NCBI GenBank assembly: GCA_003695725.1 | Contig: RFHX01000090.1 | Location: 1-5,143, forward strand | Source: J061 sp003695725 [NCBI: Candidatus Schekmanbacteria bacterium] | GTDB lineage: Bacteria > Schekmanbacteria > GWA2-38-11 | Direction: 5' to 3' | Length of the DNA: 5,143 nucleotides | Translations under genes and position numbers: made by a program | Shown here: piece by piece, positions 1-5,143 of the stretch | Numbering within the stretch: position 1 is the stretch's first letter | How the letters are laid out: each line of letters begins with the position of its first letter | The notes under the pieces: generated by a model | Databases searched by the model: none | Told to the model about the DNA's origin: nothing | What the model saw: the letters and a program-made list of their open reading frames with translations, nothing else

Positions 1-358
1 TCAACGATGTTGTTAAAAAAAGCAAAAGAGAGGAGAGTGGATATAATAATATGGATAACATTCTTCCATATTTGGAATTTGTTCCGGTAAAGCGATAGAT
101 TATTGAAACGATATAAGGGAATAATGGAAATTCTGATTCGACATAACCACTGCTGTTTCCTCCCCAATCAATTTGAGGATAAAGAATTGATGTATTGTTT
201 TCGGAAAAGTTTTTAGCCATAGCGGCAGTATCACATTGTCTCCATTCCTGATGATCTGCCAGAGGGGCTCTTATGTGGTATAGACGAGCTCCTATACCGC
301 AGAAAATTATGAGGAGAAAGAAGATTGCTATTATTAAATTATTTCCTAACTTTTTCAT
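1..358 (-). CDS. ArnT/PMT-like (GT-C, GT39-type) membrane glycosyltransferase, N-terminal part only
   Basis: The first 119 codons of a gene that leaves the window at its left edge, read from an ATG at 358-356; the frame has no stop. Seen: residues 8-24 form a hydrophobic first membrane helix after a short basic start (MKKLGNN). A polar loop follows (about 28-76) with the pattern ADHQEWRQCDTA (34-45), then YPQIDWGG (60-67) and GYVESEFPLFPY (71-82). Hydrophobic stretches resume at about 83-90 and 101-115. Family knowledge: GT-C enzymes such as ArnT and protein mannosyltransferases transfer a sugar from a polyprenyl-phosphate donor on the outer face of the membrane. Their first extracytoplasmic loop carries the catalytic acidic residue; D35, E38 and D43 are candidates here. 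Full-length relatives have roughly 500 residues and many helices, so most of the gene is missing. It is divergent from the GT4 gene across an 83-nt gap. No clear Shine-Dalgarno precedes the ATG. The acceptor (lipid A, protein or other glycan) cannot be told. Confidence 0.82.
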   Translation of the reverse strand, partial: MKKLGNNLIIAIFFLLIIFCGIGARLYHIRAPLADHQEWRQCDTAAMAKNFSENNTSILYPQIDWGGNSSGYVESEFPLFPYIVSIIYRFTGTNSKYGRMLSILLYPLSSLLLFLTTSL

Positions 359-1593: not shown

Positions 1594-1633
1594 ATAATTG
1601 ATTCAGTACTACAAAAAATTAAATGCAAAGAAA

Positions 1634-2593
1634 ATGTATGTGATATTTACTATAGACTGCGAAAGTCCTGATGACAGCATAGGATTCGAAGAATCTGTTA
1701 TTGCATCCTTTCAAGGTAAGGAATATGGAGTAGGGCTGATATGCGACATTCTGGAAGAAAAGGGCTTTTACGGGTCTTTTTTTATTGATACAGGCGCTGA
1801 GGAGATTTTTGGCGAAGATGCGGTAGTTGGCGCAGTCAATTATATTGCAAAGAGAAATCATGATGTGCAGCTTCATATTCATCCAAATGGGAATGAGTTT
1901 TGTTTTTTGGCTGATAATGAAAAAAGAGAAATGTTGAAAAAAGGATGTGAAATTATCGGGAAAGGAAGCGGCGAAAGCCCCAAGGCGTTTAGGGCTGGAA
2001 GTTATATGATGGACGAAAAAAGCATTCCTATTTTGCGAGACTTTGGAATAATTGCCGATTGCAGTAATTTTCTTTCTGTTTCCCCTCTTTCAATTACAAA
2101 AAATAGAGTTAAGATAGTCGATGGCATCTATGAAATTCCAGTCTCTTTTTATCGCCTCATTTTATCTCCTTTTATTAGTTTTTTTAATAGTGTATCCAAA
2201 AGAAATGCATTTTACGGTGGAAATTGTAAGATAGATATCAACTGGATGAACATCCACGGATTGAAGAGAGTTTGCAAAAAGTTTTTATTGGCAGGAAATT
2301 CCCTAATAGTGGTTTTCCTTCATAGTTTTAGTTTTATCAAATGGGAGATGATTAAGAATAATGCACCACTGCATTCTATCATAAGAGAAGATGTCATTGA
2401 AAGACTGAAAAGTTTTGTAAATTTTTTAAAAAATGAAAAGGGTGTTGAAGTCGTTACAGTAAAAGAATTTTTGAACTTGATTTCAAATAGTGAGGAAATT
2501 TCCAAAAAAGTTTTGTCTGCAGCGGATTATGTCCCAATTGATTTTTGGGGAATCGATGGGAAGCAATTAGTCTCTTCTCTTTTTTTTCGTTGA
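1634..2593 (+). CDS. NodB-fold polysaccharide deacetylase homologue (WalW-like, CE4-related)
   Basis: A protein of about 319 residues from ATG 1634. The first strand carries TIDCES (7-12), matching the TxDxE form of NodB motif 1 rather than TFDD. FYGSFFID (46-53) is the second strand. DVQLHIHPNG (77-86) gives the HxHP metal motif (H81, H83). FRAGSYMMDEKSIPILRDFGI (119-139) is the R-x-G-x-Y motif-3 block seen in deacetylases linked to polysaccharide loci. VVFLHSFSF (226-234) holds the late His (H230) corresponding to motif 5. Family knowledge: CE4 enzymes remove N- or O-acetyl groups from glycans with a divalent metal; the Asp-x-Glu plus HxHP pattern resembles the WalW group, whose activity is little studied. 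Start choice: TTG at 1598, only 4 nt after the preceding stop, would add 12 residues (MIQYYKKLNAKK) and permit translational coupling. ATG 1634 begins directly at the first core strand. Neither has a good ribosome binding site. No signal peptide or membrane segment is visible, so cytoplasmic action is inferred. Its last 27 nt overlap the convergent GT2 gene. Confidence 0.82.
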   Translation: MYVIFTIDCESPDDSIGFEESVIASFQGKEYGVGLICDILEEKGFYGSFFIDTGAEEIFGEDAVVGAVNYIAKRNHDVQLHIHPNGNEFCFLADNEKREMLKKGCEIIGKGSGESPKAFRAGSYMMDEKSIPILRDFGIIADCSNFLSVSPLSITKNRVKIVDGIYEIPVSFYRLILSPFISFFNSVSKRNAFYGGNCKIDINWMNIHGLKRVCKKFLLAGNSLIVVFLHSFSFIKWEMIKNNAPLHSIIREDVIERLKSFVNFLKNEKGVEVVTVKEFLNLISNSEEISKKVLSAADYVPIDFWGIDGKQLVSSLFFR

Positions 2594-3484
2594 GAATTGT
2601 TCTACTATCAGTTCTCCAAGAAAACCGAGAGAAATTATCTGAAAGCCCAAAATCATTAAGGAAACCCCAAGAATTACCATTGGAATATGCTCTTTTATGT
2701 CATATATTCTTAACAAATAATCTGATATTACCTGAAGAAGATTTATCGTAAATCCTGAAACAAAGAAAACAGCGCCAATGCCTCCAAAAAAATACATCGG
2801 CTTTTTCATAAAGGATAGGCGAAACTTTACCACGATCAAGTCTATAAATGCGGCAAACAATCTTCTAAACCCAAACTTTGAGTTTCCCGATTGGCGCGGA
2901 TACCAATTCGTTTCAACTTCTTTTACCGTGTAGCCTTCATTGCAGGCAATTGGGATGATATAGCGATGCCAATTTGCGCGAAGAGGTATATCTTCAATAA
3001 CTTCTCTCTTAAAAGCTTTTATCCAATTTTGGTCTTTTACATTTACATTGAACATAAGTTTGCAGAGAAAGTTATATATGCCTGAAGCAAAAATTTTGAA
3101 TTCCTTTCTTCCCTTTCTGCATCCTGCTGCTATATCATATCCCTCGAAGATTACAGAAAGAAGTTTTGGGATATCTTCTATTGGTTTAGATTGCAGGTCA
3201 GCAGGAAGAAAAATTATTATATCTCCTGAAACATTGGAAAAACCGGTTACAAGGGCTTCCGTGAGTCCCTTCCTTTTCCTATGATTTAGGAGTTTTAGGT
3301 TAGGTATTTCCTCTCTCAGTGATGAAACAATTTTCCCTGTATTGTCACGACTCCCGTCATTGATGACTATTATTTCTCCATCATAACCTTTTTTTTTGAG
3401 ATACTCATAAGATTGTCTTATCACTTCCTCGATGGTACCTTCTTCATCACAAGCGGGAAGTACGATACTTATCTTTTCATTCAT
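2567..3484 (-). CDS. GT2 glycosyltransferase, dolichol-/polyprenyl-phosphate mannose synthase (DPM1)-like, with two C-terminal membrane helices
   Basis: 305 residues. The GT-A domain opens with ISIVLPACDEEGTIEEVI (5-22). The nucleotide-binding INDGSRDNT is at 41-49, and RKGLTEALVTGF at 71-82. The metal-site block is IFLPADLQSKPIEDIPKLL (91-109). DQNWIKAFKREV (151-162) and HRYIIPIACNEGY (173-185) follow, then the motif NWYPRQSGNSKFGFRRL (193-209), the R-x-S/G-x-S-K signature of DPM1-like enzymes. Hydrophobic helices at about 229-252 and 267-290 end in a basic tail (KKKRRD), fitting the two-helix anchored polyprenyl-phosphate glycosyltransferases. Family knowledge: such enzymes move a sugar from a nucleotide donor to a polyprenyl phosphate on the cytoplasmic side. 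Odd: the usual DAD of DPM1 reads PAD here (D96 retained), a variant found in some bacterial members. Position: second gene of a minus-strand pair, 4 nt after the stop of the large NodB-fold gene, so co-transcription is likely. Its product could feed the divergent GT-C transferase at the left edge. Sugar identity is unknown. Confidence 0.9.
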   Translation of the reverse strand: MNEKISIVLPACDEEGTIEEVIRQSYEYLKKKGYDGEIIVINDGSRDNTGKIVSSLREEIPNLKLLNHRKRKGLTEALVTGFSNVSGDIIIFLPADLQSKPIEDIPKLLSVIFEGYDIAAGCRKGRKEFKIFASGIYNFLCKLMFNVNVKDQNWIKAFKREVIEDIPLRANWHRYIIPIACNEGYTVKEVETNWYPRQSGNSKFGFRRLFAAFIDLIVVKFRLSFMKKPMYFFGGIGAVFFVSGFTINLLQVISDYLLRIYDIKEHIPMVILGVSLMILGFQIISLGFLGELIVEQFSTKKKRRD

Positions 3485-3488
3485 TTCT

Positions 3489-5143
3489 TTATTCCACTTT
3501 AATCAGATGTTTCCCTTTTTTTAGACTTATCATTTCTCTACCTGAAATATTAACGGAAGAATAAGGATTTCCATCAACCTCTATTTTTGTTATCTCTCCC
3601 TTTGAAGGCAACATTAAAGTCAATCCATCATATTCTACATTGCATTCTATCTCAATCCTTTCTCCAATCCTTCGAAATGACAATTCGCTTTCAGCTCTCT
3701 TTTCATAAAAATCTATGAATTCTGAAATTGAAGTTTTCCAAAAGCCATCCTTTTCGTGTAAATATTTTATTATGGATTTAAATTTTTTAGAAGAATTGTC
3801 ATTACCAATGCAGAAGTGAGGGTGAAAAAGTATGACTGCAGGAGAATGATATTTGTTGAGAGAAGAGGAGAGTAGATTTCTTATTTCATCAAGGGAAAGA
3901 TTGCCTTGAGGTTCATGGACTATAAAGGGAAATTCATAGAGATTTGATATTTGCCCATTTTTTTCAGGCGAATGATAAGGAAATCCTGTGCCAAAGATAT
4001 ATCCACCCATATCTCTGCCGGGTCCCCAAGTAGAATCAACTCTTATATTAGCGCAATTTAGAAGATGAAATGTGTAGAAGGGATCATAATCACAGAGAAG
4101 ATAGTGAATTCTCGATGAATTGGAAAAGTTATTAGTACTCATCGATTCCAAAATTTCTTTTTGTAACAGGAGAGATTTATTTTTTTCATAATGAAAGCCA
4201 GCGGCTGTTATATGGAAGCGAAATCTGTTCCAATGAACGCCAATTTCTCCATTATTCTTTAATATTTCAGCAAATGTTTCTTTTGATGCTTTGGTAGAAG
4301 ACATAAAGAATATTGTAAATTTCAAATCTTCAGGAAAATCTTTCATTAAAAGTGTTTTTATTTCATCTCCACTATAATCTTCATCGAAGGTTAATATTAC
4401 TGCAGAGCGCGTACAATATGGATAGTACCACCATCTTGGAATAGATGAAATTTCAACTGCCTTGTCTATTATAAATCTTTCTAATACATCTAAAAATGGC
4501 ATATCTTCATATCTCCGCTCTTTTAAGAGACTTAAGTCGCAGGATTGAAAATGTTTGAGTTTTGAAATGCTTTTAAGCATTCTCGCAAGCATATCATCAT
4601 CATTGTCGATACCACTTGAAATTAGCCGTCTCCATTTTGAAAGAGGGAAAAAAATGCTTATTATGTTGCCTTTACCTAATCTTCTGAAAAACATCAGGCA
4701 TCTTCTGCCCAATGATAGATTGATATTGGAATCATCTGAAGTTGTGATAACACTTCTATAAGGAAGCATAACCTCAAGAGAGGGAAAAAATATTTTTTCT
4801 TCATTTTGACTGTGGATAAGAATCTCATCGATATTGAGATAGGATTCAGCGCCTGATACGACTCCTGTGATGAATTCATAGCTATTATCTGGAAATTCCA
4901 AAAAGAGAGTTGCACCTTTTTCTTCCGCCAAAAATTCAAGTTCTTTTATCAAGAGAGGTTTTAAAGAGATTTCATTAAGAGCCTCGCTTGAAAGAAATAA
5001 AAGTGGTGCATCTATATTTTTGAAAGAGAAATTATCATTAAGTTTTTCTACTGAAAAATATCCCAATTCTTTCTTCAAGATATTAATCCACTCGTATTCA
5101 TTGCTCTTTACGGCTGTATTTTTACCTGATGAAAGAATAAGCA
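3489..5143 (-). CDS. Large multidomain NodB-fold (polysaccharide deacetylase-like) protein, 5' end beyond the window
   Basis: 550 residues are visible; the start is outside the window. A TTG at 5078 is a possible start, but the frame stays open from there to base 5143. The added residues (LILSSGKNTAVKSNEYEWIN) look like a strand-loop-helix leading smoothly into LKKELGYFSVEKL. Domains in visible numbering: (a) about 1-215, alpha/beta, with APLLFLSSEALNE (45-57), a helix then GATLFLEF (76-83), and LGKGNIISIFFPL (155-167); this resembles the class I amidotransferase-like/beta-galactosidase-trimerisation type of fold (inference). (b) Linker FLDVLERFIIDKA (216-228), then PRWWYYP (235-241). (c) NodB-like domain, about 245-460: VILTFDEDY (248-256), EIGVHWNRF (299-307), WGPGRDMGGY (372-381) and AVILFHPHF (435-443). 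(d) C-terminal beta-sandwich, about 485-550, ending in a regular strand pattern (VDGNPYSSVNISG). Motif 2 lacks the usual second His (F307 in its place), so metal binding may differ and deacetylase activity is unproven. No membrane segment is visible. The GT2 gene follows 4 nt downstream. Confidence 0.75.
   Translation of the reverse strand, partial: LILSSGKNTAVKSNEYEWINILKKELGYFSVEKLNDNFSFKNIDAPLLFLSSEALNEISLKPLLIKELEFLAEEKGATLFLEFPDNSYEFITGVVSGAESYLNIDEILIHSQNEEKIFFPSLEVMLPYRSVITTSDDSNINLSLGRRCLMFFRRLGKGNIISIFFPLSKWRRLISSGIDNDDDMLARMLKSISKLKHFQSCDLSLLKERRYEDMPFLDVLERFIIDKAVEISSIPRWWYYPYCTRSAVILTFDEDYSGDEIKTLLMKDFPEDLKFTIFFMSSTKASKETFAEILKNNGEIGVHWNRFRFHITAAGFHYEKNKSLLLQKEILESMSTNNFSNSSRIHYLLCDYDPFYTFHLLNCANIRVDSTWGPGRDMGGYIFGTGFPYHSPEKNGQISNLYEFPFIVHEPQGNLSLDEIRNLLSSSLNKYHSPAVILFHPHFCIGNDNSSKKFKSIIKYLHEKDGFWKTSISEFIDFYEKRAESELSFRRIGERIEIECNVEYDGLTLMLPSKGEITKIEVDGNPYSSVNISGREMISLKKGKHLIKVE
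3493..3497 (-). promoter_or_regulatory. Candidate Shine-Dalgarno for the GT2 gene, inside the end of the upstream gene
   Basis: On the minus strand GTGGA ends 8 nt before the GT2 ATG at 3484. It sits within the last codons of the upstream NodB-fold gene, whose TAA stop is at 3491-3489. The spacing is good but the match is partial. Together with the 4-nt intergenic gap it suggests translational coupling of the two genes. Confidence 0.45.

What the first reader, a model, noticed from the sequence alone, without database searches (positions are those of the whole stretch)
3489..5143. Multidomain NodB-fold protein with divergent metal motifs between two non-catalytic-looking domains
Seen: a NodB-like core (TFDEDY at visible residues 251-256, HWNRF at 303-307, HPH at 440-442) is preceded by about 215 residues of alpha/beta sequence and followed by a beta-sandwich. 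In standard CE4 enzymes motif 1 is TFDDG and motif 2 is HxxxH. Here motif 1 has Glu in the second acidic position and motif 2 has Phe where the second His should be, although H310 lies nearby. The strongly patterned WGPGRDMGGYIFGTGFPYH block (372-390) looks like a conserved active-site loop peculiar to its own subfamily. Inference: either a different metal geometry and substrate, or a carbohydrate-binding, non-deacetylating NodB protein.
Basis: partly seen in the sequence, partly recalled or inferred. Interest (0 to 1): 0.6.

Follow-up and report, generated by a model that had tools for sequence, protein, structure and literature searches.

The report
Membrane-anchored three-domain NodB sugar deacylase
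This is a membrane-tethered bacterial protein with a sugar-deacylating (NodB) core that looks active rather than dead; its odd metal motifs are shared with a little-studied branch of that fold, so it is an uncommon variant of a known kind of enzyme.

Summary
The motifs are in the sequence as described, but two readings change. (1) The metal motifs are mostly not peculiar to this protein. Its NodB core is closest to a "[ST]HDxD ... GxH ... RxHYL ... G[FY]RxG ... H[NP]" branch, often preceded by Pfam DUF7033 (hhalign 99.4%, E 1.8e-21, 231 columns), where motif 1 is D-x-D, motif 2 has one His and motif 3 is R-x-H. In that register the second acid is D255 and E254 is the "x"; R344-H346 is motif 3; the "peculiar" loop is a variant of a branch-wide loop with Arg replaced by Ile. 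(2) The window is a whole contig that cuts the gene: four longer homologues from two families carry 73-82 more N-terminal residues with hydrophobic segments. D253, D255, H303, H310, H317, R344, H346, D369, E403 and H440 are invariant in 5 of 5, so an active metal-dependent deacylase is likelier than a dead binding protein. A GT2 glycosyltransferase is the neighbour in 5 of 5 genomes, ArnC-like in two. The layout resembles published PelADA (CE26/CBM114), without a sequence link. Structure prediction failed (pLDDT 39 and 37). New variant of a known kind; substrate unproven.

The parts
3489..5141 (-). Three-domain NodB protein, 550 codons visible, stop at 3489-3491, 5' end cut by the contig end (73 residues missing if like G001, including the hydrophobic segment)
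4512..5141 (-). Residues 1-210: alpha/beta N-domain, possibly class I amidotransferase-like, without a conserved Cys
   Evidence: weak
3687..4499 (-). Residues 215-485: NodB-fold esterase core
4374..4391 (-). Residues 251-256 TFDEDY: motif 1, D253 (proposed base), D255 (proposed metal ligand)
4221..4235 (-). Residues 303-307 HWNRF: motif 2 with one His, H303
4191..4214 (-). Residues 310-317: extra loop with invariant H310 and H317
4098..4112 (-). Residues 344-348 RIHYL: motif 3 equivalent, R344 and H346
3972..4028 (-). Residues 372-390 WGPGRDMGGYIFGTGFPYH: variant of the branch-wide G[FY]RxG loop (Arg replaced by Ile)
3816..3824 (-). Residues 440-442 HPH: motif 5 equivalent, H440 (proposed acid)
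3492..3710 (-). Residues 478-550: predicted C-terminal beta-sandwich
   Evidence: low-confidence model
2567..3484 (-). GT2 glycosyltransferase next to the NodB gene, 29% identical to E. coli ArnC over 306 columns; hydrophobic C-terminal segments

Best explanation
A membrane-anchored, three-domain carbohydrate esterase with a NodB core that removes an N-acyl group (acetyl or formyl) from an amino sugar. Most likely the sugar is attached to, or assembled on, a polyprenyl phosphate made by the neighbouring GT2, so the pair works like ArnC and ArnD. A divalent metal would be held by D255, H303 and a third ligand that is H346 (or H310) instead of the missing second His of motif 2; D253, oriented by R344, activates water; H440 is the acid. 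The N-domain and the beta-sandwich position the substrate. Shown here: sequence family, invariant residues, hydrophobic anchor in the homologues, GT2 neighbour. Inferred: NodB fold (strongly), activity (about 0.75), polyprenyl-linked substrate (about 0.45), third metal ligand (about 0.5 for H346).
For: NodB core matches the [ST]HDxD/DUF7033-linked branch at 99.4%, E 1.8e-21, against 79.3% for WbmS-like, 77.6% for a PuuE/XrtA-like set and 64.8% for a canonical TFDD set; median 0.2% over 336 single frames. D253, D255, H303, H310, H317, R344, H346, D369, E403 and H440 invariant in 5 of 5 members from two families. Four longer homologues have N-terminal hydrophobic segments. A GT2 lies directly beside it in 5 of 5 genomes: downstream in G000 and G001 (gap of 4 bases; overlap of 4), upstream in G182, G316 and G386; four of the five GT2s were called by Pfam and the fifth, of G182, is 91% identical to that of G316. 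The window and G001 GT2s match the ArnC model at E 4e-35 and 5e-34, well below its cut-off, and E. coli ArnC at 29% over about full length. In G001 the cluster also holds two PMT_2 transferases, a class that uses polyprenyl-phosphate sugars (recalled); the window keeps a fragment 67.5% identical to one over 80 residues.
Against: No relative of known activity: no meaningful PDB match to the protein or the profile. Core against ArnD by hhalign only 0.4%, so ArnD is an analogy. E. coli ArnT matches one G001 PMT_2 protein at E 0.005 only and the other not at all at E<=10. In the second family the GT2s are closest to several GT2 models, not to ArnC above the rest. Anchor topology is unclear: net charge after the hydrophobic segments is +4 to +5 in three members but -4 in G001 (segments chosen by hand), and the hydropathy scan gives one long segment in G001 and two overlapping windows in G386; an outward-facing enzyme on an exported polymer is possible. 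GT2 genes are common in glycan clusters. The window also holds another NodB gene (1598-2593) that could be the ArnD-like partner. PMT_2 genes were seen only on the G000/G001 side. BoPDA, with a His-Asp dyad, showed no detectable activity on the substrates tested (PMC11713874, passages read). The column under the sister motif 2 His is H303 by hhalign but H317 in MAFFT alignment A4.
Confidence: 0.45

Rival explanations
1. A deacetylase of an exported polysaccharide, anchored with its domains outside, like Bacillus cereus PelADA: the alpha/beta domain binds the polymer and the NodB core trims acetyl groups as it leaves the membrane.
For: Same order of parts as PelADA: membrane anchor, alpha/beta/alpha domain (shown there to bind sugar), CE domain, beta-sandwich (PMC13254593, sections 4 and 9 and passages read). 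The locus holds other glycan genes.
Against: No sequence link to the PelADA family: the DUF2194 protein L021, tied to that family by its match to 9zau (E 3.8e-42), scores 0.8% against the core and 0.1% against the N-domain, and Pfam finds no DUF2194 in the protein. PelADA has adjacent Asp residues and HxxxH (PMC13254593). No synthase-exporter pair caught my eye among the neighbours listed, but none was searched for.
Confidence: 0.3
2. A NodB pseudoenzyme that binds carbohydrate or metal without deacylating, a scaffold for the glycosyltransferase.
For: Second His of motif 2 absent in 5 of 5; catalytically inert NodB proteins are described (PMC4505593, abstract start in a search listing; PMC10967932, passages read).
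Against: The residues of the proposed base, metal site, Arg and acid are invariant over two families; the one-His motif 2 is the norm in the sister set (13 of 13). CtAxeA lacks a motif 2 metal-binding His and is active (PMC11713874, passages read).
Confidence: 0.13
3. A NodB-fold hydrolase of another amide, such as a metal-free PuuE-like allantoinase.
For: PuuE 3CL6 shares the fold and lacks the second motif 2 His (PMC10967932, passages read).
Against: 3CL6 lacks both motif 1 Asp residues (PMC10967932); here D253 and D255 are invariant, and the neighbours are glycan genes.
Confidence: 0.04

Closest known systems
NodB proteins of the [ST]HDxD branch, often preceded by Pfam DUF7033 (PF23019); no characterised member known to me
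   Same: D-x-D motif 1, single-His motif 2 (GxH), R-x-H, D before the G[FY] loop, E.P, motif 5 His; hhalign 99.4%, E 1.8e-21
   Different: No DUF7033 domain found here; G[FY]RxG Arg replaced by Ile in 5 of 5; extra loop with H310 and H317; different N-domain
WbmS-like polysaccharide deacetylase (PF22537; Bordetella WbmS, PDB 3hft)
   Same: TFD[VI]D, G[VI]HPN, R.H.L and FHP patterns parallel ours; hhalign 79.3%, E 1.6e-5, with a two-row set
   Different: Pfam does not call PF22537 in our protein; the WbmS-like proteins seen are short (234-258 aa)
Bacillus cereus PelADA (CE26 + CBM114; PDB 9ZAU; family DUF2194)
   Same: Membrane anchor, alpha/beta/alpha domain, CE domain, beta-sandwich in the same order and similar size (PMC13254593)
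   Different: No detectable sequence similarity; PelADA has adjacent Asp and HxxxH and belongs to a pel operon (PMC13254593)
ArnD (Und-P-Ara4FN deformylase) beside ArnC
   Same: In the same operon as the GT2 ArnC; E. coli ArnD has D-V-D as motif 1
   Different: ArnD keeps HxxxH, is 296 aa, and gives 0.4% by hhalign
BoPDA of Bacteroides ovatus (that it is PDB 4DWE is recalled)
   Same: CE4-like core lacking the second motif 2 His, metal held by a His-Asp dyad (PMC11713874, passages read)
   Different: TQDD motif 1; core inserted into the beta-sandwich; lipid attachment site (PMC11713874)

Membership tests
CE4 / Pfam Polysacc_deac_1 (PF01522) | Profile match above Pfam's cut-off | tested here: not met
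   0 Pfam families at E<=10 for the window protein; PF01522 not among the hits of the 5 members at E<=10
CE4 / Pfam Polysacc_deac_1 (PF01522) | Motif 1 TFDD with adjacent Asp | tested here: not met
   T[FH]DED in 5 of 5; aligned as D-x-D
CE4 / Pfam Polysacc_deac_1 (PF01522) | Motif 2 HxxxH | tested here: not met
   HWNRF in 5 of 5
CE4 / Pfam Polysacc_deac_1 (PF01522) | Motif 3 RxP | tested here: not met
   Arg kept, His where Pro is expected; the sister-branch profile aligns RxH with RAP of 3rxz, at weak score
CE4 / Pfam Polysacc_deac_1 (PF01522) | Motif 5 catalytic His | tested here: met
   H440 in 5 of 5, aligned with the motif 5 region
[ST]HDxD / DUF7033-linked NodB branch | Profile similarity of the core | tested here: met
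   99.4%, E 1.8e-21, 231 columns
[ST]HDxD / DUF7033-linked NodB branch | D-x-D, GxH, RxH, motif 5 His | tested here: met
   HDxD was the selection criterion for the 13 reference proteins, so only the other motifs are independent
[ST]HDxD / DUF7033-linked NodB branch | G[FY]RxG Arg | tested here: not met
   13 of 13 sisters have Arg, 0 of 5 here
[ST]HDxD / DUF7033-linked NodB branch | DUF7033 domain upstream of the core | tested here: not met
   one fetched sister (L012) also lacks a DUF7033 call
CE26 / PelADA (DUF2194, PF09960) | Sequence match to DUF2194 | tested here: not met
CE26 / PelADA (DUF2194, PF09960) | Anchor, alpha/beta/alpha, CE and beta-sandwich order | tested here: inconclusive
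   Order fits by sequence patterns and hydropathy; no usable model
ArnD | Sequence similarity to ArnD | tested here: not met
   0.4% by hhalign
ArnD | Deacylates a polyprenyl-phosphate-linked sugar | not testable with these tools
   GT2 neighbour only (5 of 5)
WbmS-like (PF22537) | Pfam match above cut-off | tested here: not met
   hhalign 79.3%

The most novel reading that the evidence does not exclude
A new carbohydrate esterase family whose metal is held by Asp (D-x-D), the single motif 2 His and the motif 3 His (R-x-H), working on a polyprenyl-phosphate amino sugar together with a GT2: a second, independent solution to the ArnC/ArnD step. (Whether these genomes also hold a true ArnD was not searched.)
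Probability: 0.2. Interest if true: 0.55.

Novelty: new variant of a known kind. Interest (0 to 1): 0.3.

Why it matters
It ties an unnamed protein to a NodB branch that is not rare (DUF7033 in 14 of 193 sampled genomes), for which a profile search of the PDB gave only remote NodB hits (best 3rxz, E 1.2e-4) and a paper search for the name DUF7033 gave none. It offers a testable idea of how that branch can hold its metal without the HxxxH motif. If the GT2 link is real, it would add another enzyme type to lipid-linked sugar deacylation, a step known to me from few examples such as ArnD (recalled).

Tried and rejected
Structure prediction: two single-sequence AlphaFold2 jobs (whole protein, NodB part) gave pLDDT 39.1 and 36.9, so no fold search was run.

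Scans that gave nothing: genome contigs with the protein and with A1 and viral contigs with A3 matched patterns but no relative by tblastn. PDB by sequence: nothing meaningful with the protein (best hits SH3 domains, E 0.87 up) or with A3 (best E 0.99).

Considered and set aside: canonical CE4 (motifs 1, 2 and 3 not met); CE26/PelADA membership (no sequence link); ArnD homology; DUF2334 (0.2%). Pfam on the isolated N-domains of five members: DUF4159 0.034, GH42M 0.06 and ThuA 0.24 in G386, all below cut-off, one irrelevant hit in G001, none in the other three. L050 (548 aa) aligns over 395 columns with the whole family alignment at only 65%; L013 and L050 match the core at 79.3% and 74.9% over 85 and 73 columns.

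Rows dropped: the sister set is 13 proteins chosen for [TS]HD[VIML]D from the DUF7033 loci L070-L085 plus L010-L012. L078 is L011 again. L079 was left out for its HDED; L070, L071, L084 and L085 show no [TS][HF]Dx[DE] in frames over 300 aa (L071 still has RxHFL and GFRCG, L070 GFRCG only), so not every DUF7033 protein fits the branch pattern. A later alignment, A5, has 12 rows: it leaves out L072 and L081 and adds L091. The canonical set is 15 frames with [TS][FI]DD[GA] from 20 loci named in the script, frames identical over a 100-residue stretch were counted once. Of the six weak hits, L126 and L128 show [ST]HDVD and RxH[YW]L, L129 neither; the others are loci seen before.

Register doubt: in MAFFT alignment A4 H317, not H303, falls under the sister motif 2 His, and HMMER did the same for L012; I follow hhalign (EIGVH under E.GLH).

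Full report
What is there. The frame 3489..5141 on the minus strand is open to the contig end, so its start is missing. Pfam finds no family at E<=10 in the protein, and NCBIfam gives one weak hit (PdaB, E 6e-4, 19.7 bits against 237.4).

Homologues. A search of 60 relatives matched 3 genomes: G000 itself, G001 (same family, 40% identical) and a marginal hit in G025 (E 5.6e-4, residues 28-96) that was not followed up. With the two-row alignment A1, 8 of 386 genomes matched: G000, G001, two new long homologues G182 and G316 (E 2.2e-46, 4.8e-50), and four weak hits. All 4 genomes held of the phylum of G182 were searched: 3 had it, adding G386. A further 385-genome sample around G182, which overlaps the first, matched 10: four known members and six weak hits, no new full-length member. 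The family stands at 5 sequences (A3), the others 23-40% identical to the window protein. The four longer ones (625-667 aa) have 73-82 residues before the point where the window protein begins, with hydrophobic segments: two in G182 and G316, two overlapping windows in G386, one long stretch in G001.

The core. Segments of A3 were compared by hhalign with reference sets. The NodB part matched the [ST]HDxD branch (13 proteins, largely DUF7033-linked) at 99.4%, E 1.8e-21; WbmS-like (2 rows) 79.3%; single protein L013 79.3% and L050 74.9% over short stretches; a PuuE/XrtA-like set (my label) 77.6%; canonical TFDD 64.8%; DUF2194 0.8%, the window's other NodB family 0.7%, ArnD 0.4%, DUF2334 0.2%. 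Larger sets give stronger profiles, so the ranking is not free of set size. As background, 336 distinct single frames gave a median of 0.2%; 24 exceeded 20%: 5 members and 19 others, which I judge to be NodB-type from how they were fetched and the motifs seen. The alignment puts D253 and D255 under the two Asp of HDxD, H303 under the His of GLH, R344 and H346 under RxH, D369 under the Asp before the loop, GYIFG (380-384) under GFRAG, E403 under the E of ELP, and H440 under WH.

What is shared and what is not. In the 13 sisters, the motif 2 stretch has one His with no second His at +4 in 13 of 13; RxH is in 13 of 13; D-x9-G[FY]RxG in 13 of 13; the motif 5 His in 13 of 13. HDxD was a selection criterion there and is not independent evidence; four of the sixteen DUF7033 loci show no such motif. 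In A3, 46 of 271 core positions are invariant, among them D253, E254, D255, H303, H310, H317, R344, H346, D369, E403, H440 and C444; the Arg of the loop is Ile in 5 of 5; H442 is Trp in 3 of 5. So the missing second His and the D-x-D belong to a branch, while Ile382, the HWNRF block and the insert with H310 and H317 mark this family. One DUF7033 protein, L079, also has HDED, so Glu in the middle is not unique. The sister profile aligns RxH with RAP of 3rxz at weak score, which places H346 at the CE4 motif 3 Pro; a metal role for it is inference. One register caveat: MAFFT and HMMER for one sister put H317 rather than H303 under the motif 2 His.

Other domains. The N-domain has no conserved Cys; weak hits of one member (DUF4159, GH42M, ThuA) are, from recalled knowledge, to amidotransferase-like folds. 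The N- and C-domains matched only their own family above 20% (5 of 336 each). The layout seems to recur outside the family: L055, one of three similar frames in one genome, shows an alpha/beta stretch (weak match to a beta-galactosidase, E 0.02), a canonical-like NodB and a C-terminal extension. It is published for PelADA: transmembrane helix, alpha/beta/alpha domain shown to bind GalNAc oligomers, CE domain, beta-sandwich (PMC13254593, sections 4 and 9 read, other passages). A DUF2194 protein matches that structure (9zau, E 3.8e-42). The likeness to our protein is one of layout only.

Neighbours. A GT2 touches the gene in 5 of 5 genomes, in opposite orders in the two families. Window and G001 GT2s are 67% identical to each other and 29% to E. 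coli ArnC; the other family's GT2s are 35-37% identical to G001's over 204 residues (27-29% to the window's) and 24-28% to ArnC over shorter stretches. G001's cluster also has a GT4, a second NodB gene and two PMT_2 genes, and the window keeps the GT4, the second NodB gene and a PMT_2 fragment. ArnT itself resembles these PMT_2 proteins hardly or not at all (E 0.005 and none). In the other family a Gfo/Idh dehydrogenase precedes the GT2 and a heptose-kinase-like gene follows on the other strand; both were tested by profile in G182 only and read by eye in G386; in G316 the kinase was read by eye and the dehydrogenase judged by position and length alone.

Mechanism. I commit to an active metal-dependent deacylase tied to the membrane and working with the GT2, as stated under Best explanation. 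Precedents for a missing motif 2 His: BoPDA holds metal by a His-Asp dyad, and CtAxeA is active without that His (PMC11713874, passages read). D-x-D is used by PelA (D528/D530; PMC12022489, passages read), and E. coli ArnD has D-V-D. Against: BoPDA showed no activity on tested substrates, the anchor topology is ambiguous, and the second NodB gene may be the real partner of the GT2.

Novelty. Not canonical CE4, not CE26 and not ArnD by the tests made. Searches for DUF7033 (no paper) and for NodB, 'polysaccharide deacetylase' and 'amidotransferase-like' (48 papers hold at least two of three terms, 12 listed, none of the 12 with the last) found no description of this protein type; only the held open-access library was searched. 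I rate it a new variant of a known kind.

Noticed in passing
window 1598-2593 (+); G001 L004:13575-14525: A second NodB gene (FTIDCES, LHIHP motifs in the window copy), 44% identical between the two genomes, convergent with the GT2; the G001 copy passes the Pfam cut-off for Polysacc_deac_1, the window copy has no such hit.
   Followed up: partly
window 2-358 (-): Fragment of a PMT_2-type membrane glycosyltransferase cut by the contig end, 67.5% identical to G001 L004:10885-12354 over 80 residues.
   Followed up: partly
L021 (G052:C10): A DUF2194 (PF09960) protein matches PelADA structure 9zau at E 3.8e-42, so this Pfam family of unknown function appears to be that of the published CE26/CBM114 enzyme.
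   Followed up: yes
L055 (G010:C29, about 15 to 19 kb): Three neighbouring 589-607 aa frames with NodB hits; the two read (one only in part) show an alpha/beta stretch followed by a NodB core, with a C-terminal extension in the complete one.
   Followed up: partly
L030 (G227:C8): The search reports an open frame of 14,061 aa at this weak hit: a giant gene or a repetitive stretch.
   Followed up: no
L079 (G101): A DUF7033 NodB protein with HDED as motif 1, the same middle Glu as here.
   Followed up: partly
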